Shown here: positions 32,169-43,588 of the stretch, piece after piece
How positions within the stretch are numbered: position 1 is the stretch's first letter
Layout: every line of letters begins with the position of its first letter
Assembly: GCF_003387075.1 (NCBI RefSeq)
Contig: NZ_QUMQ01000001.1
Coordinates: 4,030,001 to 4,094,000 of the forward strand
Source: Asanoa ferruginea
Lineage (GTDB): Bacteria > Actinomycetota > Actinomycetes > Mycobacteriales > Micromonosporaceae
DNA length: 64,000 bases
Reading direction: 5' to 3'
Program-made: the position numbers and the translations under genes
The notes under the pieces: generated by a model
What the model was told of the DNA's origin: nothing
The model's input: the letters and a program-made list of their open reading frames with translations, nothing else
Database searches by the model: none

Positions 32169-32837
32169 GTGAGCTACGCGAAGGTGCTGTCCGTCGGACT
32201 GGTGGGAGTCATGGGACACCTCGTCGAGGTCGAAGCCGATCTCTCCGCCGGGCTGCCCGCCGTCGTGATGTCCGGCCTGCCGGACACGGCTCTCAACGAG
32301 GCCCGCGATCGGGTGCGGGCAGCGGTCGTCAACTCCGGTGAGCGCTGGCCAAACCGGCGCATCACCGTCAACCTGCTGCCCGCCACCCTGCCCAAACACG
32401 GTTCTGCCTTCGACATGGGGATCGCGGCCGCGCTGTTGGGGGCGGCCGGCGAGCTACCGCTGGCCGCCCTCGACGGTGTCGTGATTCTCGGCGAGCTCGG
32501 GCTCGACGGGAGCGTCCGCCCGATCCGGGGCGTGCTGCCGATGGTGGTCGCGGCCCTGCGCGCCGGCGTGCACCACGCGGTGGTCCCGCTGGCCAACGCC
32601 GCCGAGGCCGCCGTGGTTCCGGGCATCACGGTCAAGGCCGTCGAGACCCTGCACCGGCTGGTGGCGTTCGTCCGGTCCGGCGCCGCGCTGCTCGATCCGC
32701 CCGCCGACCGGCCACCGCCCGAGTCGCCGATGCCCGACCTGGCCGACGTGGCCGGCCAGGCGCTGGGCCGGCGCGCGATCGAGGTGGCCGCCGCGGGCGG
32801 GCACCACGTGGCGATGTTCGGGCCGCCCGGGGCCGGC
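32169..32837 (+). pseudogene. comM: comM (YifB, Mg-chelatase-like ATPase), 5' part split by the element
   Basis: The first 223 codons of a ComM/YifB AAA+ protein: SYAKVLSVGLVGVMGHLVEVEADL, VVMSGLPDTALNEARDRVR, and the N-lobe of the ChlI-like domain. The sequence ends in AMFGPPGAG, the start of Walker A, and there the mobile element begins. The frame continues without a stop into the integrase, so the translated product here is a 752-aa fusion. Joining to the 3' part at 42728 restores GPPGAGKTMLAERLP and a 509-residue protein, the normal length. ComM is a helicase for branch migration in natural transformation. Confidence 0.93.
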
Positions 32838-32840
32838 ATG
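32823..32840 (+). other. Left attachment junction (attL) in comM
   Basis: Host sequence ccgcccggggccggc (P-P-G-A-G) is followed at once by element sequence atgccgtcagatac. The right junction shows ccacctggagcggga then aag. The two differ at most third codon positions, so the identical core is only 2 bp, which is usual for serine integrases. The exact crossover dinucleotide cannot be fixed by eye. Confidence 0.75.
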
Positions 32841-34427
32841 CCGTCAGATACAGTCCTGCTCATGATCACCGAGTACCTGAGCGGCTACGTCCGCTTGAGC
32901 AAGGAGCACGGCGACACCAACGTCAGCCTTGCGGGCATGGTTGCCGACGTGGTCGCCATGGCAGAGCGCTACGGCTATGCCCTCGCTCCGCATCCTGGCC
33001 CCGACTGCCCGGAATCGTGCCAGGGGCAGCCTGTACACGTTGACGACGGCATCAGCGGTGCCGTCCGCAACCGGCCGGCATTCCTAGCGTGGCTCGCCGA
33101 CGGGCGCTCAGGTGCCGCTTCCGCCCTAGGCACCTGGCACACCGACCGCCTGACGCGTGAGGGCGTCAACGCTGGCGCGCTGGTCCTCGACGTTGTGGAA
33201 GGCAAGGACCCGCTAACGGGGCGCGTCGTCTTCCCGCCCGTTCGGTTCCTGGGGAGCGACGGCACCGACTCCCGCGACGAGTCGGCGTTCCGGTTCCGGT
33301 TCGTGATCGATGCCGAGGTGGGCAGGGCCGAGCGCGCTCGAATCTCCGCACGGAACCGCGCGAAGGATGCCCGGCTGCGCGCTGCCGGCCGGTTCGCAGG
33401 TGGAGGCGCGCCCTACGGGTACCGCGTGGTCCCAGCGCCGGACGGCAAGGGCAAGGCATTGGACATTGAGCCCGTAGAGGCCGCCGCAATCCAGCAAGCG
33501 GCATCCATGATCCTCGCCGAGGATGGCACCACCCTTGGGGATGTCACCCGATGGATGACCGCCAATGCGCCAGCCCGCCGCACGTCCGGCTGGTCCCGCT
33601 CGACGCTCAAGCATTGTTTGACCAACTACGCCCTTACCGGTGCCGTCATGGTCCGACCCCGCGACGCGGCCGGCAACCGGGCGACCAACAACCGCGAGAC
33701 GCAACCACTGCTCGACGACGCCGGCAACGTCGTTCGCCCCTGGCCCCAGATCCTCTCGCCCGCGACCGTGGAGGCCGTACGGACAGCCCTGTCCGGCCGT
33801 CGCGGTGGCGCCCGACGCGGCGCCGGCCGAGCCCCCGCCCACCTGCTGACCAACCTCATGAGCTGTTCGGGCTGCGGTCGCCCAATGAACATCTGGTACG
33901 CCCGGAAACGGCAGTACTTTTGCCCGTCGGACCGCCTCAGCCTGTTCTGCCCGCGCCGCGTGAGCATCCAGGCCGACATTGCCGAGGCGTACCTAGTTGG
34001 CCTCTACCTCGGCGCGGTGGGTGACAACGAGATGCAAGCCCCGGTGGTCACCGTGGCCGGTGGAGGCGAGCGCGAACGCGTCGAGTCGGAGCTAGCCGAC
34101 GTCATGCGCGCACTGTCCCGTCAGATCACGCCCGAGCTGGTCGCCCGGATCACCGATCTTCAAACCGAGCGTGACGCCCTGGCCGCCATGCCGGTGCAGC
34201 GGCACACCGAGTGGCGCCCAACCGGCCGCACGTTTCGTGAGGAGTGGGAGCGGCGCGCCGACGACGTACTGTGGCGCCGATCGCTGCTGGCCGAGGCATT
34301 CGCCGAGCTGACCGTGTTGCCCGGCCGCATGCCGGTCGCCCAGCGCATCCGCTATCGCTGGTCGGACATCGAACCATTCGCCACGCTCGCCGAACTCAAA
34401 CGCGATCTGGAGTGGTACGGCGGCTGA
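32838..34427 (+). CDS. Large serine integrase of the element
   Basis: Recombinase of 529 aa. The resolvase domain has the catalytic serine in GYVRLSKEH (Ser21), then VHVDDGISGAVRNRPAFLAWL and WHTDRLTREG. The recombinase domain follows (GGAPYGYRVVP), then a zinc ribbon CSGCGRP...FC...FC (from Cys343) and a coiled-coil-like region. The ATG at 32838 is exactly at the junction. In the excised circle the element's right end would place ggagcgggc before it, a good ribosome binding site; in the integrated state this is lost and the gene is fused in frame to comM. An internal ATG at 32862 is an alternative start. Confidence 0.92.
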   Translation: MPSDTVLLMITEYLSGYVRLSKEHGDTNVSLAGMVADVVAMAERYGYALAPHPGPDCPESCQGQPVHVDDGISGAVRNRPAFLAWLADGRSGAASALGTWHTDRLTREGVNAGALVLDVVEGKDPLTGRVVFPPVRFLGSDGTDSRDESAFRFRFVIDAEVGRAERARISARNRAKDARLRAAGRFAGGGAPYGYRVVPAPDGKGKALDIEPVEAAAIQQAASMILAEDGTTLGDVTRWMTANAPARRTSGWSRSTLKHCLTNYALTGAVMVRPRDAAGNRATNNRETQPLLDDAGNVVRPWPQILSPATVEAVRTALSGRRGGARRGAGRAPAHLLTNLMSCSGCGRPMNIWYARKRQYFCPSDRLSLFCPRRVSIQADIAEAYLVGLYLGAVGDNEMQAPVVTVAGGGERERVESELADVMRALSRQITPELVARITDLQTERDALAAMPVQRHTEWRPTGRTFREEWERRADDVLWRRSLLAEAFAELTVLPGRMPVAQRIRYRWSDIEPFATLAELKRDLEWYGG

Positions 34428-34519
34428 CCGCCGGCCCCCAAATAAGCGCCCGAGCGCCAGGGTTCCCGCCCCGACGCCCGGACTAGATCACCCACCAGAC
34501 TCAACCTGGAGGCAACCCA

Positions 34520-34846
34520 ATGAACGACGCTACCGGTTCAACCCCGATGCACCCTGACCAGCACGTTCCCCCGACTGCGCCGGCTGACGAACTGGCCGCG
34601 ACCGCCGTCGAGATCCTGGCCGAGTGGAACGCGGAAGGCCTGCGGCCCGCCGAGCGCCGAGCCGTGAACGCCATCCGCGTCCGCGTTGTGAGCGCGACCG
34701 TCGTCGAAGCAAGCGGCGAAGACGACTTCTGGCCGAGCGAGTTACTGACTACCGCCGCCGAGCAGCACGACCTGCCCGGCGCGCCGTGGCGCGTCTCGAA
34801 GACGCCGACGGTCTACCGCTTCGACGCATGGCCGGTCGCGCTGTGA
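34520..34846 (+). CDS. Hypothetical element protein, 108 aa
   Basis: Unrecognised acidic protein starting MNDATGSTPMHPDQHVPP behind a good GGAGG (gaggcaaccca). The middle contains LAATAVEILAEWNAEGLRPAERRAVNAIRVR, probably helical. The end, LPGAPWRVSKTPTVYRFDAWPVAL, is beta-like. No cysteines, membrane helix or HTH is evident. Directly downstream of the integrase it could be a recombination directionality factor, but nothing in the sequence proves this. Confidence 0.65.
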   Translation: MNDATGSTPMHPDQHVPPTAPADELAATAVEILAEWNAEGLRPAERRAVNAIRVRVVSATVVEASGEDDFWPSELLTTAAEQHDLPGAPWRVSKTPTVYRFDAWPVAL

Positions 34847-34888
34847 ATGACCGCGTGACCGCCTGAGCGCGCCGCAGGCGCCCCCGAA

Positions 34889-34924
34889 CGCCCGGCCCCT
34901 ACACACCCCGTAGGCCGCCGGGCG
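34889..34924 (+). terminator. Hairpin after the 108-aa gene
   Basis: cgcccggc..cctac pairs with gtagg..gccgggcg with a two-base mismatch in the stem and a loop of about 8 nt. No long T-run follows, so it is only a candidate terminator. Confidence 0.4.
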
Positions 34925-35087
34925 TCTTGGCGTCTCTGGGCTTCTGGACGCCGGCCGCACACCTCGCCGCGCCGAGGCCCCCTAACTGGGTGAGACATAC
35001 CGGCCAGAAGCCGCACACATGGCAGGGCTGAGGCGCAGTAACTCTATGTGCGACACAGAGTTTCTCCACCGGAGAGGGAGGCCCGAA

Positions 35088-35243
35088 ATGCACTGTTCCG
35101 AGTGCTCGCACCCTCTTCCGCATAGGAGTGCCAGTTACCACCGCCGGACGTGCTCCGCGCGCTGCCGCTCCCGCCGCAGCCGCCGGCTGCGCGCCGTCGA
35201 GTTGACCGAGCTGCGCGCCTGGCGCGCTGAGCTGGCCGCGTAA
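35088..35243 (+). CDS. Small zinc-ribbon protein, 51 aa
   Basis: Short basic protein: MHCSECSHPLPHRS then RRTCSARCRSRRSRRLR. Two Cys pairs (CxxC and CxxxC) separated by about 16 residues suggest a zinc ribbon, followed by an Arg-rich helix that could bind nucleic acid. The ATG at 35088 follows gagggaggcccgaa; the frame is open upstream to 35019. Proteins of this type recur in actinobacterial mobile elements. Role unknown. Confidence 0.6.
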   Translation: MHCSECSHPLPHRSASYHRRTCSARCRSRRSRRLRAVELTELRAWRAELAA

Positions 35244-35439
35244 ACCACTGACTTCCCCGCCATCGTCGGACGCGACGACGGCGAAGGAACACCCACCACC
35301 GCGCCACCGTATCGCCGGCAGGTTCCGGCACCGCGACCCGGCGCAACCCCGCCACCCGCACGCAGGCGTGCGTACCGGCAAACCAGCAGGTCTGGGCAGA
35401 TCGATCAGCCTCACTCTGTCTAGATTGGACAACACTCTC

Positions 35440-36342
35440 ATGGCGAACACCCTCGTCAACTACAGCAACAACCTCGCTCAGGTCGTCTCGGCTCTGGTCA
35501 CCAGGGATCTCCGCGTGGCCTCACTGGTCAACCGCGAGTTCTCCACGGAGTTCGAAGGCACGCGCGGCGGGTCGGTTAACGTCCGCATCCCGGCGAGCCT
35601 CACGGCGCAGTCCCGGAACCTGGGCGTGCTGACGGCGTACCAGACTTCGGACCTGGTCCAGGCGACGCAGCCTGTCGTGCTCACGAACGACTTCTACAGC
35701 CGCGTCGCGCTCGCCGACTCGGACCTGACGCTGAGCGTCACGAGCTACGCCCGCGACGTGCTGCTTCCGCAGAGCCTCTCGATCGCTGCTGGCGTAGAGA
35801 ACATGGTCGTCTCGAAGCTCCAGACGGTCGCCGCCGACACCACCCTCGGCAGTGCCTACGACCCCACCGACAAGGCCCAGGTGCTCGACTTCCTGGTCGA
35901 CGTGCGGGCGGCGCTGCGCGCGCTCAGCGCTCCTGAAACCGGCCTCAACGTCGTTCTGAGCGTCCCGGCCTACGCCGCGATGCTCAAGGCGATCGGCGGT
36001 GCCTCTTACGACCAGGGCGTTGGCGACCTCGCTAGCGGCAAGGTCGTGCGGGTGGCTGGCCTCAACGTGGCCGAGTCGAACCGACTCGACACGGGCGAGG
36101 CCATCGCGTTCCACCGCGACGCGATCACCCTCGCGATGCAGGCCCCGGCCGCCGCGCGCGGCGCCGACTCCGCCAACGGGCAGGCCGACCAGTCAGTCCC
36201 GATCCGCATCGTGCGGGCGTTCGACAACGCGACCGGCGCGCACGTCTCCCTCGTGAACGTGTTCGCGGGTACCGCGCTGATGACCGCCAACGTCGAAGGC
36301 ACCAGCAAGAACTGGACGATTCGGGTTGAGGCTGCGGGCTGA
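35440..36342 (+). CDS. P22-coat-like major capsid protein
   Basis: Protein of 300 aa starting MANTLVNYSNNLAQVVSALV. Its layout (N-terminal helix, VNREFSTEFEGTRGGSVNVRIPASL, then VLTNDFYSRVALADSDLTLS, and a central insertion-like region) matches my recollection of the P22 gp5-type coat family with the HK97 fold. The Ala/Thr/Val-rich, cysteine-free composition fits a capsid. The ATG at 35440 lies 196 bp after the previous gene without a strong SD. A strong terminator follows. No scaffold, portal or terminase is adjacent, which is odd for a capsid gene. Confidence 0.65.
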   Translation: MANTLVNYSNNLAQVVSALVTRDLRVASLVNREFSTEFEGTRGGSVNVRIPASLTAQSRNLGVLTAYQTSDLVQATQPVVLTNDFYSRVALADSDLTLSVTSYARDVLLPQSLSIAAGVENMVVSKLQTVAADTTLGSAYDPTDKAQVLDFLVDVRAALRALSAPETGLNVVLSVPAYAAMLKAIGGASYDQGVGDLASGKVVRVAGLNVAESNRLDTGEAIAFHRDAITLAMQAPAAARGADSANGQADQSVPIRIVRAFDNATGAHVSLVNVFAGTALMTANVEGTSKNWTIRVEAAG

Positions 36343-36413
36343 CCGCCGCCCCTAGTGGACATCCGCAAGTTCTGACGGCTGGCACCGTCCGAGCACGCAT
36401 ACGCAAGAGCTTG

Positions 36414-36461
36414 AGCCCCTCGGGCAGGTTGTGCCAGCAACCCGCCCGGGGGGCTCTTTTC
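36414..36461 (+). terminator. Strong rho-independent terminator after the capsid gene
   Basis: gagcccctcgggcaggttg and caacccgcccggggggctc form a stem of about 18 bp with a short loop (tgccag), directly followed by tttt. It starts 72 bp after the capsid stop. Confidence 0.92.
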
Positions 36462-36484
36462 GTTACCACACAAGGAGATCCGAC

Positions 36485-36850
36485 ATGGCCACGCACATCA
36501 GCGCACCGACCGGAAGGAAGTTCCCTCCGATCGTCATCACGCGCATCATCATCTTCCCCGCCGCCGAGGACCGGCCCGCCATCCGCATGGGCTACGGCTA
36601 CGGCACGAACGGCCGGACCGGCCCCGACGGTCAGCGCCGCGACCCGTTCCGTTTCGGACTGGGCGAGGTCGGTACGCCGATCGGCCCCTATCTGGGCCTG
36701 CACGGGCGTTCGATCGTCAAGCTGCCGGACAGTGCTGACGACCTGTCCATTTTGCTCGCGCGCCACAGCCCCACCGGAGAGCGCCTTCCGATGGGGCGCG
36801 GCAACCTGGCCGACCTGGAGGCGCCCGACCTGATTGTGGAGCCCGCATGA
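36485..36850 (+). CDS. Hypothetical element protein, 121 aa
   Basis: Unrecognised protein starting MATHISAPTGRKFPPIVITR with a good SD (aaggagatccgac). It is rich in Gly/Arg/Pro, with RMGYGYGTNGRTGPDG and GTPIGPYLGLHGRSIVKLP. No membrane helix and no Cys. It directly follows the capsid terminator, and its stop overlaps the next ATG (ATGA), so it starts a new transcription unit with the two small genes after it. A structural or head-decorating role is possible but unsupported. Confidence 0.6.
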   Translation: MATHISAPTGRKFPPIVITRIIIFPAAEDRPAIRMGYGYGTNGRTGPDGQRRDPFRFGLGEVGTPIGPYLGLHGRSIVKLPDSADDLSILLARHSPTGERLPMGRGNLADLEAPDLIVEPA

Positions 36851-37014
36851 GCACCCAACGCGCCGACGAACTGATGGTGATCGCGGTCGCTATCTACATC
36901 GTGGCCGATTCGGCCCCCGGTGACCCGGCCGACCCCGACGGTCTGCCGGCCGCTCTCTACGCCGAGGCCGACGCCGCGTACGACGTCGCGTTGGCGATGG
37001 GCGCTAGGCCCTGA
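36847..37014 (+). CDS. Very small protein, 55 aa
   Basis: Starts MSTQRADELMVIAVAIYIVAD, overlapping the previous stop by 4 bp (ATGA). The product is short and acidic, ending in YAEADAAYDVALAMGARP. GC at third positions is high, consistent with coding. Function unknown. Confidence 0.55.
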   Translation: MSTQRADELMVIAVAIYIVADSAPGDPADPDGLPAALYAEADAAYDVALAMGARP

Positions 37015-37053
37015 AACCCACCCATCCACCCGCCTTGGTACTGAGGAGCACCA

Positions 37054-37239
37054 ATGTCTACCAGCGACGAACAACCCCGGCCCCGCCGCCGGGGCGGTCG
37101 CCGCGTGCAGCGCGCCAGGCGCACCGCTGAGCGCCACGCTGCCGCCCGCGCCACTGCCGCCACCGTCGCAACCATCGCCGCCGCAGCGCACCGCGCGCCG
37201 GCCGTCCAGGAGCCCCCTAGTGTGGACCACACCCCGTAG
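37054..37239 (+). CDS. Very small basic protein, 61 aa
   Basis: Begins MSTSDEQPRPRRRGGRRVQRA behind gaggagcacca. The N-terminal half is Arg-rich and the rest Ala/Thr-rich. It overlaps the start of the HNH gene by 20 bp in another frame. It may bind nucleic acid; function unknown. Confidence 0.5.
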   Translation: MSTSDEQPRPRRRGGRRVQRARRTAERHAAARATAATVATIAAAAHRAPAVQEPPSVDHTP

Positions 37240-37840
37240 CCTGCCGCCAGATTGGGCGGCCCGCCGCTCGACCGTCGCCCGCCTTCACGACTATCGATGC
37301 GCCATCTGTGCGCGCGACACGACCGACTACGACGTTCCCGACGGCGAGACCGACCACGTCGGCGATCGCGACGACCATCGAATCCGTTCGCTCCGATGGC
37401 TCTGCGCCGCCTGCCATGCCAGCCGCACCGCCGCGCAGGCCGCTACCGGCCGCCATGGCCGCATCTGCCAGCAATGCGCCGCCGAGATGCCGCAGCGACC
37501 GCCCAAGCGCGGTAGGCCGCCCGTCTGGTGCTCGCCCGCTTGCCGCCGCGCTGCCCGCACCGCCCACGAACGCGCGAGCCACAACGCCCGCGCCGAATGG
37601 GCCACGGCCGAGCAGGCCGCCGCGTTGGCAGGCATGGCCGCCATTGCAGCCGTCCGCCAGATTGAAGCCGAGTACGCCCACGTGATGGACCGCGCCCACA
37701 CCGCCCGCCGCCTGCTCTCCGCGCGCTACACGTCCGCCTGGCTTGCCGCCGAGCAGGACGCCGCCCGCCAAGCCGCCCTCCGCCACGACGCCGCCAACGC
37801 CGCCCGCGCTGAGGCCGCCTCGTCACGCCGACGCGGCTAG
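37220..37840 (+). CDS. HNH-type endonuclease-like protein
   Basis: Protein of 206 aa. The N-terminal half has an HNH-like layout: YRCAICARD (Cys27, Cys30), GETDHVGD (Asp45, His46), and LCAACHAS (Cys62, Cys65, His66). A second zinc ribbon follows (CQQC at 83-86, CSPAC at 104-108). The C-terminal half is an Ala/Arg-rich helix, probably a coiled coil. The GTG at 37220 lies inside the preceding small gene; the frame is open further upstream but out of the HNH pattern. HNH proteins near capsid genes often help packaging in phages with a terminase, which is missing here. Confidence 0.72.
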   Translation: MWTTPRSLPPDWAARRSTVARLHDYRCAICARDTTDYDVPDGETDHVGDRDDHRIRSLRWLCAACHASRTAAQAATGRHGRICQQCAAEMPQRPPKRGRPPVWCSPACRRAARTAHERASHNARAEWATAEQAAALAGMAAIAAVRQIEAEYAHVMDRAHTARRLLSARYTSAWLAAEQDAARQAALRHDAANAARAEAASSRRRG

Positions 37841-38207
37841 CGCCCTCACTGAATCCGGGAGAACTGGCGACCCGCCCGGAACCTCTCCAGTTGACGACAT
37901 CTGTCACTTAATCCCGCCCACCGCGGACCAACCCGCGACCAGGCGTTTCGCGCTCTACCGAACTCCGATCTCAGCCGTTCGGCTAGTAGTCCCGTCTGTC
38001 ACTTAATACGACGCGGAGAGGCCCCGTCCCGCTCGCGATCCCTGCTCGGGTGGTGTGTCAGGTGCCTTCTGAGGGCTGAGCCGAGAGGAATCCAATAGGC
38101 GTCTGTCACTTAACCGCTGCCAGCCGGGCGCCCCTGGCAACCCGCCCATTCACGCCCGCTTCTCGCGGAGACCAGACGCCCGCCCGATCTCCCGAGGAGC
38201 ACCGCCC
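37841..38207. other. Non-coding stretch with three direct repeats
   Basis: 367 bp between the HNH gene and the next small gene. It contains tctgtcacttaa three times, at 37900, 37995 and 38102, on the plus strand. A strong SD (gaggagcaccgccc) precedes the next ATG. I see no gene in it. Confidence 0.65.
37900..38113 (+). repeat. Three exact 12-bp direct repeats TCTGTCACTTAA
   Basis: Copies at 37900-37911, 37995-38006 and 38102-38113. The last two extend to cgtctgtcacttaa. Spacings are 95 and 107 bp. A 12-bp exact repeat three times within 214 bp of GC-rich DNA is unlikely by chance. Confidence 0.85.
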
Positions 38208-38723
38208 ATGACCGCCTTGCACGCCTACGCCGCCCGCTGGGCGGACGAGTACGCCGCCGCGCTCGCCATCGAGCTGGACGCCGCCTCCGCACATCCCTAC
38301 GCCGCCGCGTACGTGACCGCCTGCGATGAATGCCCGCCCCCGCTCGACTTCGACCCGCTCGACCGCCAGGACGCCCGCCGAATCGCGCGTGCAGACGTCC
38401 ATCGCCGCCTGGGGTCGCGGCATGACGGCGCCCGCCCGCTGTGGGCGTTGCCGTCGCGAACCGCCCGCGCTCGGGCGTACCCGCTGTGCCTCATGCGCAG
38501 CACGGGACGCCGCCGAGCAGCGCGCCCGCCGCGACCTTGCCCGCGCCGCCGGTCTGTGCACGACGTGCTGTCTACGACCGCCCGACGCCGGAATGGCGCA
38601 GTGCGTCAGTTGCCGCGCATATGGCCGCGCACGCGACCGATCCAACCGCCTCGACAAGACGACCTAGGAGACACCAACCCATGGCAAGCACCGACCTCTT
38701 TGCGGCCTACGGCCGCCGCCTGA
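38208..38723 (+). CDS. Hypothetical element protein, C-terminal part uncertain
   Basis: Frame starts MTALHAYAARWADEYAAALA after cgaggagcaccgccc. The first 70 residues look like a real Ala-rich helical protein with CDECPPPLDFDP. From about 38422 the coding signal appears to move to another frame, that of the cysteine-rich gene. The remainder of this ORF (Arg/Pro-rich) may be a passive overlap, or a frameshift may join both. Total open length is 171 aa. Confidence 0.45.
   Translation: MTALHAYAARWADEYAAALAIELDAASAHPYAAAYVTACDECPPPLDFDPLDRQDARRIARADVHRRLGSRHDGARPLWALPSRTARARAYPLCLMRSTGRRRAARPPRPCPRRRSVHDVLSTTARRRNGAVRQLPRIWPRTRPIQPPRQDDLGDTNPWQAPTSLRPTAAA
38422..38667 (+). CDS. Cysteine-rich double zinc-ribbon protein, 81 aa
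   Basis: Begins MTAPARCGRCRREPPALG and has eight cysteines in four pairs: CGRC, CASC, CTTC and CVSC, so two ribbons of CxxC-n-CxxC separated by an Arg/Ala-rich helix. It overlaps the previous frame from 38422. This arrangement suggests a small nucleic-acid-binding protein. No family name is offered. Confidence 0.6.
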   Translation: MTAPARCGRCRREPPALGRTRCASCAARDAAEQRARRDLARAAGLCTTCCLRPPDAGMAQCVSCRAYGRARDRSNRLDKTT

Positions 38724-38917
38724 CCGACGCTGGCCTTGCGCTGGCCGCACTGCCTTCTCAGGACGCCCCCGACACCGCCGCCGCCTGGCACGAATTCACC
38801 GAGGCAAAGGCCGCGCTGCTGTCGCTGGTCCAGTCCGTGGACTACCAGACGACGCAGGCGTACGCCGTCCTTCCGTCCCGGCTCGCACCGGCGCCGGCCG
38901 CGCCGAGCGACGCCTAA
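38681..38917 (+). CDS. Hypothetical element protein, 78 aa
   Basis: Starts MASTDLFAAYGRRLTDAGL with a good SD (ctaggagac). Mostly helical: TAAAWHEFTEAKAALLSLVQSVDYQTTQAYAVLP. No cysteines or membrane helix. It lies 13 bp after the cysteine-rich gene. Function unknown. Confidence 0.65.
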   Translation: MASTDLFAAYGRRLTDAGLALAALPSQDAPDTAAAWHEFTEAKAALLSLVQSVDYQTTQAYAVLPSRLAPAPAAPSDA

Positions 38918-38930
38918 CGGACCGCCCGCG

Positions 38931-39167
38931 CTAGATGTTGTTCACGACCACAGTCTGAGGCGGATTCGGCCCTTCCAGCAGCACGCGCAGGGCGCCGGCA
39001 AACTGCTCGCACAGGACGCTCGCATCCGCCGGGCAGCTAGGGCACCACCGCGCACCAACCGGCTTCGGTGGCCCGTACATCCCGAGGTGCGCACCGACCG
39101 TGTAGCCGGCCTGCATGTGCGCCCAACCCCAAGCGAACCGATCGACGTCCGTACGTGGATCTCCCAT
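38931..39167 (-). CDS. Hypothetical element protein, 78 aa
   Basis: Minus-strand gene starting MGDPRTDVDRFAWGWAHMQAG, then GAHLGMYGPPKPVGARWCPSC, and ending TVVVNNI. The single CPSCP pair could belong to a zinc site. The frame is open upstream to 39278 but with lower coding character. It is divergent from the GntR-type regulator, sharing the intergenic region with tandem 9-mers, so it is a likely target of that regulator. Confidence 0.55.
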   Translation of the reverse strand: MGDPRTDVDRFAWGWAHMQAGYTVGAHLGMYGPPKPVGARWCPSCPADASVLCEQFAGALRVLLEGPNPPQTVVVNNI

Positions 39168-39322
39168 GCCGCCCGGCCCCCTCTGCTTGCGGCATGGCCG
39201 GCTGGGCCTCGCAGGCAGCCAGCCGACCACGCCCGTTTGGGCGGGCCGCAAGGAGTCATCCCTGTGGATGTGGGGCATCCTGCCACGGATTACTCACACG
39301 CCCCTTGCGGCCCGCGATCGAC

Positions 39323-39367
39323 AGTAGTGCCAGTAATGCCAGTAGTGCAATGGGTGCAAGTAGCGCC
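39323..39367 (+). promoter_or_regulatory. Five tandem 9-bp repeats upstream of the GntR gene
   Basis: Units agtagtgcc, agtaatgcc, agtagtgca, atgggtgca and agtagcgcc run without spacing from 39323 to 39367, 22 bp before the regulator start. They are candidate operators for the regulator acting on itself and on the divergent gene. Confidence 0.6.
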
Positions 39368-39388
39368 TACGGTGGGTAGGCGCAGCCT

Positions 39389-39610
39389 GTGGGCGTGCCG
39401 ATTCCTCACACCGCCCAAGAGATCGAAGACGATCTCTTGCGACGGATCGGCGCTGGCGAGTTTCGGCGCGGAGAGCGCCTCCCGACCTACGACGAACTAG
39501 CCGCCGAGTACGGCTCGGCCCGGCGCACCGTCGCCCGCGCGATCGACGCTCTCAAGGCGCGCGGCATCGTGGTCGGCGTCCAGGGGTCCGGCACATACGT
39601 CGCCGAGTAG
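39389..39610 (+). CDS. Small GntR-family transcription regulator
   Basis: Protein of 73 aa. It is almost only a winged helix-turn-helix: AQEIEDDLLRRIGAGEFRRGERLPTYDELAAEYGSARRTVARAIDALKARGIV, then GVQGSGTYVAE. This is the GntR DNA-binding domain with no C-terminal effector domain, so it cannot sense a ligand in the usual way. Such truncated GntR regulators control transfer or maintenance genes on actinomycete mobile elements. The GTG at 39389 is the only start that keeps the first helix. Confidence 0.85.
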   Translation: MGVPIPHTAQEIEDDLLRRIGAGEFRRGERLPTYDELAAEYGSARRTVARAIDALKARGIVVGVQGSGTYVAE

Positions 39611-39863
39611 TTCGGCCCCTCGCGGGCGACCCGGCCGCACGACACGACCGTCCGCGGGTCACCGTGCATGTGCATTGCGTTACTAGCGACAGCGACGAAT
39701 ACCCGCAGGTCAACGAGTTTTGGCACGTCGATTCTGTCGACCAGGGCGACGCGTCCGCGTCTGCGCGACCCGCTCGCCGACATGGCCGCTGGCCGCGCCG
39801 CTGTGCGCCAACGCCGCATCACTTTGGATGCCGGGGAGCCAAGCAAGTCCGCCGGACTTAGAA

Positions 39864-39881
39864 TGCCAAGTGCACTTGGCA
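39864..39881. promoter_or_regulatory. Perfect 18-bp palindrome
   Basis: tgccaagtgcacttggca reads the same on both strands with no spacer. It is a candidate operator for a dimeric regulator. Confidence 0.7.
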
Positions 39882-40311
39882 CTCTGCGCTAGGCAGTCGG
39901 CCTATAGCTGATTGCGTAGCGCGACCAAGTGGGCGAAGACGCCCCCGCCGACTTTCTCAGGGCTGACGGGGGACGCCTTCATCGGATGGTGGTCTCGTCT
40001 GAGCTGTGAGGCTTAGACGAGGCCGCTCCCGCTGAGCAGCGACACGAGCTGCACGACGAGAGACGCAGTCTGAATCAGGCTGCGAGCCCACCCCCCTCGC
40101 GAGCAATCACAACGGTGCTTGCCGCGATGGCGGAGTTGGCGCGGGGGCATTCCTGGCCTCCTTGTGAGTCCACACCACGGCGGACCTTTGCCCGCCGCTG
40201 CTTCTGGGGCCTCCTTTGCGTGTGAGGGCTCGGGGCTTGATTGGACTACACCCGCGTAACTTCCGCCCCGACAGCGTATCGGCACATCGGGCTGAGGGCC
40301 TGGCGACATCA

Positions 40312-40466
40312 TGACGACGTCTTGCTTGGCGGCATAATGACGTCACGGCCGCGTGAGGTTGACGCCTATCTCGCGCGCCTGACCCGTCGGCCGCCGTGCT
40401 TTTGCTGACGCTGCCCGACGTCATTGGCCTGTCCGCTGACGTCATCGCGCCACCAAGTGACGCCAC
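40312..40466. promoter_or_regulatory. Cluster of TGACGTCA-like palindromes
   Basis: Exact TGACGTCA at 40338-40345 and 40437-40444; partial copies tgacgacgtc (about 40312), cgacgtca (40416-40423) and gtgacgccac (about 40457). Five sites in about 155 bp, upstream of the gene at 40641. Confidence 0.65.
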
Positions 40467-40640
40467 ATCGGTGGCCATGGCAACCCGCCGGCCAGTACCT
40501 GGCTGAGCAATTCCTCGGCGTAGTCCTGCGAGTGCAGGAATCCCGGCATACCAGGAGATCCACTCCGACCGTCCGGTGCGTCAACCGCCGCCCTCTCCGG
40601 TCGCTGCTCGTTAGCACACGCGTTCGATTACGCTGGCGGC

Positions 40641-40958
40641 GTGGAAGCAAGGGGCATCCCGCAGACGCGTGCGTCGGCATGGCTGATGACGACCGACCGG
40701 CCGCCGACCGCGCTTGCCCTCGTGCAGCTCCAAGAGCGGATCGAACGTCCGTGGGGATGGGACCTGCTCGTGTACCGCTGCGCCGACTACCCGGGCGCAC
40801 CGGCCGAGCAGACGCAGCGCGCCACCTACCCGCCCGAGGCTGAGGCGGACGCCTGGGCGGACTACTACGCCCTCATCGACGAGGGCCGATCGCTGGGTCG
40901 CTGGCAGCACAACCGCAGGTACGTCGAGGGGCCATTCGTCGCCCCGCCGGACGACTAA
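40641..40958 (+). CDS. Hypothetical element protein, 105 aa
   Basis: GTG start at 40641. The sequence ALVQLQERIERPWGWDLLVYRC and EAEADAWADYYALIDEGRSLGRWQHNRRYVEGPF looks like a compact soluble protein with many aromatic residues. No known motif. Its size and position beside a cluster of palindromic sites would suit a DNA-binding or directionality factor, but this is inference only. Confidence 0.6.
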   Translation: MEARGIPQTRASAWLMTTDRPPTALALVQLQERIERPWGWDLLVYRCADYPGAPAEQTQRATYPPEAEADAWADYYALIDEGRSLGRWQHNRRYVEGPFVAPPDD

Positions 40959-41494
40959 GGACGCCCGGGCCGTTCACTCCGCCGATTGTGGCCGGCGAGG
41001 CCGCGCCCGCCCCGGCGCTGGTATCGGTGCGGTCCGTGCGCGGTTTGACTCACGCGCTGAGCGGAGCTGAGCGCATGGCCATCACGCGCAGTAGTGCCGA
41101 GCCATCTAGCGCTTCCGATGTTGTGGATGCGACGTGAATCAATGTCACGTTCGGTCATCTCATTACGATGACTCTTCGTGACCATTAAGCAGGTCGATGG
41201 CATATTATGCAGCGATCTGGACGGCGACGAACCTCAATGTCTACGCAGCGCGACGTTGATTCAAGCGACGTTTGCCTATTTACCCAGCTCAGGATGGGTG
41301 GGGGACAACCCCCTAACGCTCCGGATACCCGGACCACGGAGTGGGCAGCTCTCATTTTGTACGGGCATACAAATTTTTATGCATGTACGGGCAGCACGCT
41401 CTGTAACCAAGCCCGGCAGTGCCGCGATTGGCACCTACCCTGCGCTACGTAACGCCGGGTGGCATCGACCCGCATCAACGAAAGGACACGCCCC
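40959..41494. other. Stretch with lower-GC patches, no clear gene
   Basis: 536 bp. The frame 41178-41498 (starting MTIKQVDGILCSDLDGDE) is open but its third positions are not GC-rich, so coding is doubtful. Two exact copies of tgtacgggca flank a short AT-rich tract at 41358-41393. This patch is among the least GC-rich parts of the window and may be more recently acquired or hold a promoter. Confidence 0.5.
41358..41393 (+). repeat. Direct repeat TGTACGGGCA flanking an AT tract
   Basis: tgtacgggca at 41358-41367 and 41384-41393, separated by tacaaatttttatgca. Spacing is 26 bp start to start. It may be a regulator binding site or an AT-rich unwinding element. Confidence 0.6.
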
Positions 41495-41713
41495 GTGACG
41501 TCGAACCCCATCGATCCCGGAGCCAGCCTGAGCGTGTCGGCAACCATCGATGCTGATCTCGACCTTGACGATACGGCAGACCTCGACTCGACGCCGCGCC
41601 AGACCGCACGCCGGAACGCGCGGCGCGACGCGGAGCGTGCGGGTCGGCAGTCGACCGCCGCTGAACTCGACCGAGCCGTGCGCGACGCGCAGCGGCGCCG
41701 ACCGGCCCGCTGA
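41495..41713 (+). CDS. Hypothetical element protein, 72 aa
   Basis: GTG start at 41495 after gaaaggacacgcccc. The first half is acidic (ATIDADLDLDDTADLDS), the second very basic (TARRNARRDAERAGRQS). Possibly a nucleic-acid- or protein-binding linker. It is convergent with the abortive-infection gene, with only 10 bp between the stops. Coding is likely but not certain. Confidence 0.5.
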   Translation: MTSNPIDPGASLSVSATIDADLDLDDTADLDSTPRQTARRNARRDAERAGRQSTAAELDRAVRDAQRRRPAR

Positions 41714-41723
41714 GCCGCCGTCG

Positions 41724-42617
41724 CTACGGCCCGGCCGCCGCTGGCGCCGCAGCCGGCGCGGCTGTCCGCCACGGCGCGCCCGGGTCGGCAAAGGTGTCGA
41801 GCACCAGTTGGCACCACACGTGCGCGGCGCCCACAGCGAGCACGGCATGGCGACGGTGCAGCCCAACTCGCGGAGCTGCCGGCGCGTGGCCCGTGCCGTA
41901 TCCCTCGTTCCGCAGCTCGACAAGGCCCATCGCGATCCCGGACAGCCCGCCGAGGATGCGCTTCACAGCCTGGCTTCCGTCCGGTCCGGGCGCGAGGGTC
42001 TGCGGGTGCAGGTGCAGCTCCCGCTGCGTCGTATCCACGAGCCACGGCAGCTTTACGGTCCTGTCGTCGAACGGCACGCCCCGCTCGCCGAGCACGGTCT
42101 TCGCGGTTGCCTCGATCAGCTCCTTGGCCGACCCGATCGCCTGCGCCGGGTCGTCGGGCAGCGCGCGTGCGATCCGGTCGAACGAGTCGAGGATCATCGA
42201 CGGATCGCGAAGGGCGCTCAGCGACGCCGGAGGCTGAGGCACCGACTTTCGCGGCTTTGGCGCCCAGGTGCGCCGCGAATCGATCATCCCGTTTGGATAC
42301 ACGACGAAATCGTGTCGGCGCAGCGCCGCGCGCGCCGCCTTCAGCTCGTCCTTCGTGAGCTGTCCTTCGTCGAGCAGGTGCTCGTAGACCTTCAGCACGC
42401 GGCGCGCGTCCGCCGGGTCCATCCAATCAACGCCGTCCTCATAGCGACGCCAGCGCGACCGTCGCTCACCGGACTCGTCGTTCGGCACGTCGGACAGCGC
42501 GAACCCGTGGTCCCGCCACATGCCGTCGATCTTTCCCAACGTCGAGTGTGAGGAGGACAGGTCCCTGAAGTACCGCCGCACCGGCAGCGGGATCAGATCG
42601 GCGTCGGTCACGAACAC
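41724..42617 (-). CDS. Abortive-infection (Abi_C domain) family protein
   Basis: Protein of 297 aa at the right end of the element. The C-terminal region from about residue 140 fits the abortive-infection C-terminal domain: AIGSAKELIEATAKTVL, then SGIAMGLVELRNEGYGTGHAP, then RRHAVLAVGAAHVWCQLVLDTF. This is a HEPN-like layout with an Arg-His pair (R236, H244; seven residues between, slightly wider than the usual four to six). The N-terminal half contains LRRHDFVVYPNGMIDSRR. It is probably a phage-defence cargo gene. GTG at 42617; GTG 42611 is an alternative. It faces away from the comM 3' part. Confidence 0.72.
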   Translation of the reverse strand: MFVTDADLIPLPVRRYFRDLSSSHSTLGKIDGMWRDHGFALSDVPNDESGERRSRWRRYEDGVDWMDPADARRVLKVYEHLLDEGQLTKDELKAARAALRRHDFVVYPNGMIDSRRTWAPKPRKSVPQPPASLSALRDPSMILDSFDRIARALPDDPAQAIGSAKELIEATAKTVLGERGVPFDDRTVKLPWLVDTTQRELHLHPQTLAPGPDGSQAVKRILGGLSGIAMGLVELRNEGYGTGHAPAAPRVGLHRRHAVLAVGAAHVWCQLVLDTFADPGAPWRTAAPAAAPAAAGP

Positions 42618-42706
42618 AAAGGGTAGCCAGCCGACGCTTCCGCGCCGACACCTTTACGAGTGGACCTTCGCCGCCGGCCACGGTAACGGTTCATCCATCA
42701 TTTGGC

Positions 42707-43588
42707 GTGTTGCCACCTGGAGCGGGAAAGACGATGTTGGCCGAGCGGCTGCCGTCGGTGCTGCCGTTGCTCGACGACGAGTCGGCGCTGGAGGTCTCCG
42801 CGCTGCACTCGGTGGCGGGCCTGCTCCCGGCCGGCGGCCGGCTGCTCCGCCGGCCACCGTTCCAGGCACCCCACCACTCGGCGACGCTGGCCGCCCTGGT
42901 CGGCGGCGGTTCCGGCCTGGCCCGACCCGGCGCGGTCTCGCTGGCACACCGAGGCGTGTTGTTTCTGGATGAAGCCCCCGAATTCGCCACGAGAGCCCTC
43001 GAAGCGCTGCGCCAGCCGCTCGAGTCGGGCCGGGTGCTGCTGAGCCGCACTGGCGGCACCACCGAATATCCGGCGCGGGTCCAGTTGGTGATCGCGGCCA
43101 ACCCCTGTCCATGCGCGCAACCACAGGGCGACGCGCGCTGTGAGTGCACGCCGGTCGCCCGCCGCCGCTATCTGGGCCGCCTGTCCGGCCCGCTGCTCGA
43201 CCGCATCGACGTGCAGCTCGAGCTGATGCCGGTGACCGCGGCAGACCTGTTCACCGCGAGCCGGGCCGGCGAGCCGTCGGCTGACGTGGCCGAGCGGGTG
43301 GCCAAGGCCAGAGCCGCGGCGTGGGCCAGGTGGGCGGTCGACGGCTGGCGGGTCAACGCCGACGTGCCGGGCCCGCAACTGCGCCAACCACCATGGCGGT
43401 TGCCGCTGCGCGACACCAAGGAGCTTCGCAGACGCCTCGACAGCGGCGGTCTGTCGGCCCGGGGCTTCGACCGGGTGCTCCGCATGGCGTGGTCGATCGC
43501 CGACCTCGACGGCCGAGACCGTCCGATGGCCGGCGACGTTGACGAGGCGCTGGCCCTGCGCACCGGAGGGCGGCGGCTCCATGTCTGA
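42707..43588 (+). pseudogene. comM: comM (YifB) 3' part, with a start created at the right junction
   Basis: Encodes from LPPGAGKTMLAERLPSVLPLL to the end of ComM. It has Walker B RGVLFLDEAPEF, the Arg-rich SGRVLLSRTGG, a Cys-rich stretch CPCAQPQGDARCECTP, and the C-terminal helical bundle. A GTG at 42707, partly from element sequence, opens the frame just before the P-loop, so a 293-aa protein with an intact ATP site but without the N-terminal lobe could be made. Whether it is active is unknown. It overlaps the dprA start by 8 bp. Confidence 0.88.
42713..42730 (+). other. Right attachment junction (attR) in comM
   Basis: Element sequence ccacctggagcggga runs directly into host aagacgatgttggccg. 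The element end itself encodes P-P-G-A-G with other codons than the host copy at attL, so the P-loop is rebuilt here. Confidence 0.75.

What the first reader, a model, noticed from the sequence alone, without database searches (positions are those of the whole stretch)
32823..42730. Serine-integrase element inserted in the Walker A motif of comM
Seen: comM is cut after P-P-G-A-G and resumes at K-T-M-L 9.89 kb later; rejoining gives a 509-residue protein of normal length. The element's end itself encodes P-P-G-A-G with different codons, so attP mimics the P-loop. This gives an integration site under strong protein-level conservation, which should be present in nearly every host of the clade. 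comM is a known island target in Acinetobacter, but there with other integration machinery.
Basis: partly seen in the sequence, partly recalled or inferred. Interest (0 to 1): 0.85.

Follow-up and report, generated by a model that had tools for sequence, protein, structure and literature searches.

The report
Integrase element splits comM's ATP-binding site
A 10-kb mobile DNA element has used a serine integrase to insert itself into the ATP-binding motif of the competence-related gene comM in a soil actinobacterium; the insertion is real and precise, but comM was already known as a favourite target of such integrases.

Summary
Confirmed: comM (509 codons when its flanks are joined) is cut at the P-loop glycine codon (GPP-G-AGKT) by a 9,890-bp element whose PhiC31/Samy-like serine integrase starts 7 bp from the likely crossover. 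In Asanoa hainanensis a 96% identical integrase, with the same attP over the central 18 bp, sits in another gene while comM is intact. This fixes the element ends and weakens the claim that the site serves nearly every host. LSR elements in comM are a known kind: Durrant 2022 gives Mg-chelatase homologues as target of 12.4% of site-specific LSRs, and Wolbachia phage WO uses the same gene. New here is a partial site map in actinomycetes: 12 insertions with an LSR near the break, at Walker A (2), a LAH-RG motif (2) and Walker B (8). A distant LSR in G522 hits the same Walker A Gly-Ala codons in the opposite orientation, and that comM is cut twice. The element carries a lone phage capsid gene and HNH, GntR and Abi_C genes; the last three and the integrase are under purifying selection, so a small phage-related satellite is likelier than debris. 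Interest is moderate.

The parts
32169..32830 (+). comM 5' part (ChlI domain up to the G of GPPG); attB left half
32829..32830 (.). attL crossover dinucleotide GG (most likely position, inferred)
   Evidence: comparison of both ends with the A. hainanensis element
32831..42720 (.). integrated element, 9,890 bp
   Evidence: ends shared with the A. hainanensis copy (10,083 bp)
32838..34427 (+). large serine integrase (529 aa); open in frame with the comM 5' part (752-aa ORF 32169-34427)
   Evidence: Pfam Recombinase/Resolvase, phrog_95 2.8e-52, ORF, tree
34520..34846 (+). 108-aa ORF of unknown function, conserved in the A. hainanensis element (dN/dS 0.30)
35440..36342 (+). major capsid protein (300 aa); no match in the A. 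hainanensis element
   Evidence: phrog_283 6.9e-35; 36-37% to Arthrobacter phage MCPs in the rows listed; no hit in L044
36485..36850 (+). 121-aa ORF, unknown
   Evidence: no family hit
37220..37840 (+). HNH endonuclease (206 aa)
   Evidence: phrog_333 1.3e-12; dN/dS 0.37
37898..38113 (.). three copies of CRTCTGTCACTTAA, spacing 95 and 107
38931..39278 (-). 115-aa ORF, conserved in the A. hainanensis element (dN/dS 0.25)
39389..39610 (+). small GntR-type HTH regulator (73 aa), dN/dS 0.07
40641..40958 (+). 105-aa ORF, conserved in the A. hainanensis element (dN/dS 0.23)
41724..42617 (-). Abi_C-domain protein (297 aa), dN/dS 0.16
   Evidence: Pfam Abi_C 3.6e-19
42719..42720 (.). attR crossover dinucleotide GG (inferred)
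42719..43588 (+). comM 3' part (P-loop G to the end); attB right half

Best explanation
A small phage-related integrative element integrated by its own large serine integrase: one crossover between attP (..TGCCACCT-GG-GGCCGGCATG..) and attB in comM (..GGGCCGCCC-GG-AGCGGGAAAG..), GG being the first two bases of the P-loop glycine codon. [Shown: ends, integrase gene, intact comM in relatives, a second copy with the same attP core. Inferred: that this integrase did it, the exact dinucleotide, that excision would restore comM.] In this genome comM is split and most likely inactive, since neither piece holds the N domain together with a whole ATPase domain. A likely reason for the site is that DNA coding for catalytic AAA+ motifs of a single-copy, nearly universal gene changes slowly, so distinct LSRs have converged on it (inference). 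The capsid, HNH, Abi_C and regulator genes, with no portal, terminase or replication gene recognised among the ORFs scanned, suggest a satellite that depends on a helper phage, or a reduced prophage.
For: Ends from two copies. comM intact in A. hainanensis and the P-loop kept in all five congeners searched. dN/dS between the two copies: integrase 0.10, GntR 0.07, Abi_C 0.16, four others 0.23-0.37. A. hainanensis attP is an imperfect inverted repeat (14 of 20), the window's 11 of 20. 11 more LSR-flanked comM insertions in 10 genomes: junctions, integrases. The G522 Walker A integrase is about 26% identical to this one and falls in another part of the tree, yet breaks comM in the same Gly-Ala codons. 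MCP and HNH by PHROGs. comM N half: dN/dS 0.077-0.111 against 0.083-0.122 for intact pairs; C half 0.112-0.164 against 0.064-0.153: a recent insertion, or a comM still used when the element is out.
Against: No reads or circular form were available; no exact 21-bp attP match in viral contigs. The A. hainanensis copy sits at a site that matches attP poorly (6 of 18; 49% of window positions do as well) with a core AG against GG, so the integrase is not strictly comM-specific, and with two copies in two sites comM cannot be proved the primary attB. Of 17 loci with this integrase or its 36-46% relatives none has comM beside it (2 of the 17 are A. hainanensis; 10 have at most 1.5 kb of flank). In an alignment of 29 comM proteins Walker A ranks 4 of 504 six-residue windows for conservation, but LAH-RG only 56 and Walker B 68 (Walker A is favoured by how sequences were picked), so conservation alone does not single out the sites. 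MCP against its G031 relative has dN/dS 0.48, weak constraint. No helper phage was sought.
Confidence: 0.88

Rival explanations
1. The comM insertion is itself an off-target event: the integrase's normal attB lies elsewhere, and both known copies are strays.
For: Two copies, two sites. Integrases of 36-46% identity lie beside other genes: pirin-like proteins (L054, L056, L059; recognised by eye and recall) and comEC. The integrase of phage Samy (38%) uses a radical-SAM gene (PMC12924846 passages).
Against: attP matches the comM site at 12 of 18 against 6 of 18 for the other site; the core GG agrees exactly only at comM.
Confidence: 0.2
2. Regulated gene integrity: the element leaves to restore comM when it is needed, as with the comK prophage of Listeria (recalled).
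For: Clean in-frame crossover, no stop in either comM half, N-half dN/dS as in intact pairs; integrase frame open.
Against: The window copy has no match to the DUF2637 gene (phrog_733, labelled excisionase) of the A. hainanensis copy; its attP is less symmetric; C-half dN/dS tends to be higher.
Confidence: 0.2
3. Blocking transformation: the element gains by inactivating comM, because transformation could delete it (hypothesis of Croucher 2016).
For: Competence genes recur: comM here, comEC for the 46% relative in G056; PMC4774983 passages; enrichment of competence genes in PMC10083194 section 6.
Against: Natural transformation is not established in these actinobacteria (recalled); slow change of the DNA may suffice to explain the choice.
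Confidence: 0.25
4. Degenerate prophage remnant: capsid and HNH genes are left-overs of a deleted prophage.
For: Six family genomes (G244, G279, G313, G316, G342, G344) match both the integrase and the MCP; in 5 of the 6 the two lie 14-18 kb apart on one contig. Whether these are whole prophages was not examined. MCP dN/dS 0.48 against G031.
Against: Two elements of 9.9 and 10.1 kb share much of their backbone and both ends, with seven genes at dN/dS 0.07-0.37.
Confidence: 0.3

Closest known systems
LSR elements in magnesium chelatase/ATP-dependent protease genes (Durrant et al. 2022, PMC10083194, section 6 read)
   Same: Serine integrase, same target gene family; 12.4% of predicted site-specific integrases
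   Different: The section read does not say where in the gene; here the site is Walker A
Phage WO sr1WO prophages of Wolbachia (PMC9203015, passages read)
   Same: Serine recombinase, Mg-chelatase gene split on both sides, one prophage at a secondary site
   Different: Prophage of an endosymbiont; the site within the gene was not compared here
Islands in comM of Aggregatibacter, Acinetobacter, Mannheimia, Francisella, Pseudomonas (Croucher 2016, PMC4774983, passages read)
   Different: Other integrase (CF65_00446-like); other hosts; site not compared here
Streptomyces phages Samy and Dubu (PhiC31-like; Samy called related to PhiC31 in the abstract of PMC12924846)
   Same: Integrase family: 38% to Samy, 40% to Dubu
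   Different: Whole phages; Samy attB lies in a radical-SAM gene (PMC12924846 passages)
MulchRoom/MiniFlayer satellites and cf-PICIs (PMC10690885 passages)
   Same: Satellites with capsid and HNH genes
   Different: Those have terminase, portal and further head genes; here only MCP and HNH were recognised

Membership tests
Large serine integrase | Resolvase catalytic domain, Recombinase domain, zinc ribbon | tested here: met
   Pfam Resolvase 4e-7, Recombinase 5.7e-9, Zn_ribbon_recom 3.8e-4 (the last below its curated cut-off); phrog_95
Large serine integrase | Recombines attP with attB at a 2-bp core | not testable with these tools
   Core GG inferred from two copies; activity untested
LSR element in comM/Mg chelatase | comM split by an element with an LSR at one end; empty site in relatives | tested here: met
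PhiC31-like integrase clade | Groups with PhiC31 integrase | tested here: inconclusive
   Groups with integrases beside pirin-like genes in a tree of 18 (support values not examined, PhiC31 not included); 38-40% to phages Samy and Dubu
Capsid-forming PICI | MCP, portal, protease, connectors, both terminase subunits, HNH | tested here: not met
   Only MCP and HNH recognised; not every short ORF was scanned
Actinomycete integrative conjugative element | FtsK-like translocase and replication initiator (recalled) | tested here: not met
   No such family among the ORFs scanned, apart from weak matches of the GntR protein's HTH to replication-initiator profiles
Regulated gene integrity element | Excision restores the gene under a given condition | not testable with these tools
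   No reads or expression data

The most novel reading that the evidence does not exclude
DNA encoding the catalytic AAA+ motifs of comM is a general landing platform on which distant serine integrases have converged almost base for base (Walker A Gly-Ala codons twice, Walker B Asp-Glu codons eight times in this survey), and here the insertion also puts the integrase in one open frame with the first 220 or so residues of ComM, so that the host's comM promoter and translation start could drive the integrase or a ComM-integrase fusion, tying mobility to comM expression.
Probability: 0.12. Interest if true: 0.65.

Novelty: new member of a known kind. Interest (0 to 1): 0.4.

Why it matters
It puts a known trend, serine integrases targeting comM, at near base resolution: LSRs from several parts of the tree strike codons of Walker A and Walker B. 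It shows that nearly the same element can sit elsewhere while comM is intact, a caution for predicting attB from protein conservation, and it offers an integrase whose attB can be tested as a genome-engineering tool.

Tried and rejected
Rejected: assembly artefact (one-contig genome, sister copy with the same ends). Rejected: crossover in the alanine or second glycine codon, because the two copies stop agreeing after CCACCTGG on one side and before GGGCCGGC on the other; a core one base further right (GG against GA here, GG against GC in A. hainanensis) cannot be excluded. Rejected: 'any P-loop will do': CCNCCNGGNGCNGGNAARACN occurs once in the own genome without mismatch, at attR itself. Rejected: the comM-integrase open frame as a conserved design; in A. 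hainanensis the integrase lies antisense to the gene it interrupts, and in G049 the comM frame ends at L046:4131, in another frame than the integrase. Led nowhere: attP pattern in viral contigs (0 hits); MCP in viral contigs (3 stretches, 0 confirmed); integrase in viral contigs (4 loci at 37-40%, not followed); Rfam (0 matches); PADLOC for five ORFs (only weak HTH matches of the GntR ORF). The conservation ranks are biased for Walker A: sequences were picked with a P-loop pattern (28 of 29 loci gave one; 29 rows with the window). Papers: searches; the 2020 'regulated gene integrity' paper is not held; Integrase-On-Demand main text has no whole word comM, yifB or chelatase, nor has the Mycobacterium prophage paper PMC10654092.

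Full report
What is there. The window lies in a one-contig genome of 9,071,909 bases. Its congener G003 has a contig of the same length (808,383) carrying the same integrase as Asanoa hainanensis CGMCC 4.5593, so I take the host to be an Asanoa species, Micromonosporaceae; this is inferred. comM is named by Pfam; the neighbours look like yraN and dprA (recalled, not tested).

The split. comM begins at GTG 32169. Codons run to GGG CCG CCC GG at 32830; then the element starts with GGCCGGC and the integrase ATG at 32838. On the right the element ends ..TTGCCACCTGG at 42720 and comM goes on A GCG GGA AAG ACG ATG. Joined flanks give 509 residues. A. hainanensis comM aligns over both halves, and all five congeners keep GAGKTMLAERLP.

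How the ends were fixed. Of 101 genomes searched with the integrase 5 matched at E<=1e-20, own included; of 354 family genomes 10 at E<=1e-60. Only G003 is close (96%). Its element is 10,083 bp and lies in another gene, comM being intact. The copies agree up to CCACCTGG on one side and from GGGCCGGC on the other; their attP strings agree at 18 of 18 bases around the core and 48 of 52 further out. The end of the interrupted gene has relatives in 53 of 354 family genomes at E<=1e-12, itself included. In one search all 14 homologues keep one frame across the joined point; 5 (L072-L076) have a two-residue gap there and L081 a one-residue gap a few residues before, the rest none at the point. In that frame the empty site has AG where attP has GG, so a core mismatch must have been resolved. 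attP matches the comM site at 12 of 18 bases, the A. hainanensis site at 6 of 18, and A. hainanensis comM at 11 of 18. Why comM was not used there is unexplained; it may be chance.

The element. Recognised: integrase, MCP, HNH, GntR regulator, Abi_C protein. dN/dS between the two copies is 0.07 to 0.37 for seven genes. The A. hainanensis copy has a DUF2637 gene (Pfam; phrog_733, labelled excisionase) in a stretch with no match in the window copy, and no MCP hit. A 62% relative of the MCP lies in G031 on an 8.7-kb contig with an HNH-like ORF and a frame break; dN/dS over its first 204 codons is 0.48, so constraint on the MCP is weakly supported. The G056 relative (46%, 43%) has on one side comEA and what look like the first codons of comEC (recognised by eye and recall), and the comEC body (PF03772) about 10 kb away on the other, so it appears to split comEC.

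Other insertions in comM. Of 101 relatives 99 matched the C half; G049 and G063 have comM split on one contig with an LSR beside the break, and G045 has contig ends at the same Walker B codons. Of 393 genomes of the class, drawn by the tool and overlapping the first set, 377 matched (its list of places was cut). 23 of them had two or more matches: I re-searched 16 with weak best scores and left 7 (G439, G463, G511, G512, G575, G663, G672) whose best match looked whole. With 5 genomes having one weak match, and G063 and G045, one search covered 23 in all (G049 is among the 16). I fetched 11 besides G049, G063, G045; 9 (G452, G539, G573, G687, G424, G471, G410, G535, G675) were not followed. An LSR lies in the fetched flank in G522 (two), G713, G445, G570, G772, G520, G505, G497, G049 and G063: 11 insertions in 10 genomes, 12 in 11 with the window. 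The G522 Walker B integrase is about 1.1 kb from the break, the others closer. The comM pieces lie about 6 to 229 kb apart; for the far ones (G505, G063) one single element is not shown. G408 has an insertion with no LSR seen by three queries; G651 and G724 were not resolved.

Where they hit (read by eye): Walker A in the window and G522; a LAH-RG motif in G772 and G520; the Asp-Glu(-Ala) codons of Walker B in G049, G063, G522, G713, G445, G570, G505, G497. In G522 attL reads CCAGGCGCAGGTACACAG and attR TGTGTACCAGCGGGCGCCGGC, sharing GGCGC, so the crossover lies in the glycine and alanine codons; the centre of the inverted repeat TGTGTACC..GGTACACA falls on the same GG as in the window. Its integrase has the other orientation and groups with Walker B integrases (G049, G713, G522), away from the window's (18 proteins, one run, support values not examined; the G522 Walker B protein kept an untrimmed N-terminal extension).

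State of comM. No stop in either half. N-half dN/dS is like that of intact pairs, C-half tends higher. This fits a recent insertion or occasional restoration; it does not decide.

In print. Durrant et al. [quoted passage not shown] Most sr1WO recombinases of phage WO integrate into the Mg-chelatase gene of Wolbachia, with one secondary site described (PMC9203015, passages). Croucher et al. (PMC4774983, passages) list islands in comM and argue that such insertions block transformation. I saw no statement of a Walker A or B position in the listings of searches or in the passages read; supplements were not readable here.

Verdict. The finding is real and well described.

Noticed in passing
window 35440-36342: Lone major capsid gene in a 10-kb integrative element with HNH but no recognised portal, terminase or protease; a 62% relative in G031 (L106, from 3559, with a frame break) lies on a small contig with an HNH-like ORF.
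   Followed up: partly
L147 and L148 (G522): comM cut twice, at Walker A and at Walker B, by two different serine-integrase elements.
   Followed up: partly
L111 (G056): A 46% relative of the integrase in a roughly 10-kb insertion that appears to split comEC a few codons in, next to comEA.
   Followed up: partly
L044 11713-12951 (A. hainanensis element): DUF2637 gene, labelled excisionase in PHROGs, in a stretch missing from the window copy; possible directionality factor.
   Followed up: no
window 37898-38113: Three copies of a CRTCTGTCACTTAA repeat about 100 bp apart downstream of the HNH gene.
   Followed up: no
L149 and L150 (G408): Insertion in comM at Walker B whose ends carry a short inverted repeat (TTTAGCGACC); no serine integrase seen in the fetched flanks.
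   Followed up: no
window 42707-43588: The element end supplies GTG and TTG codons in frame before the comM 3' part, so a truncated ATPase could be made.
   Followed up: no
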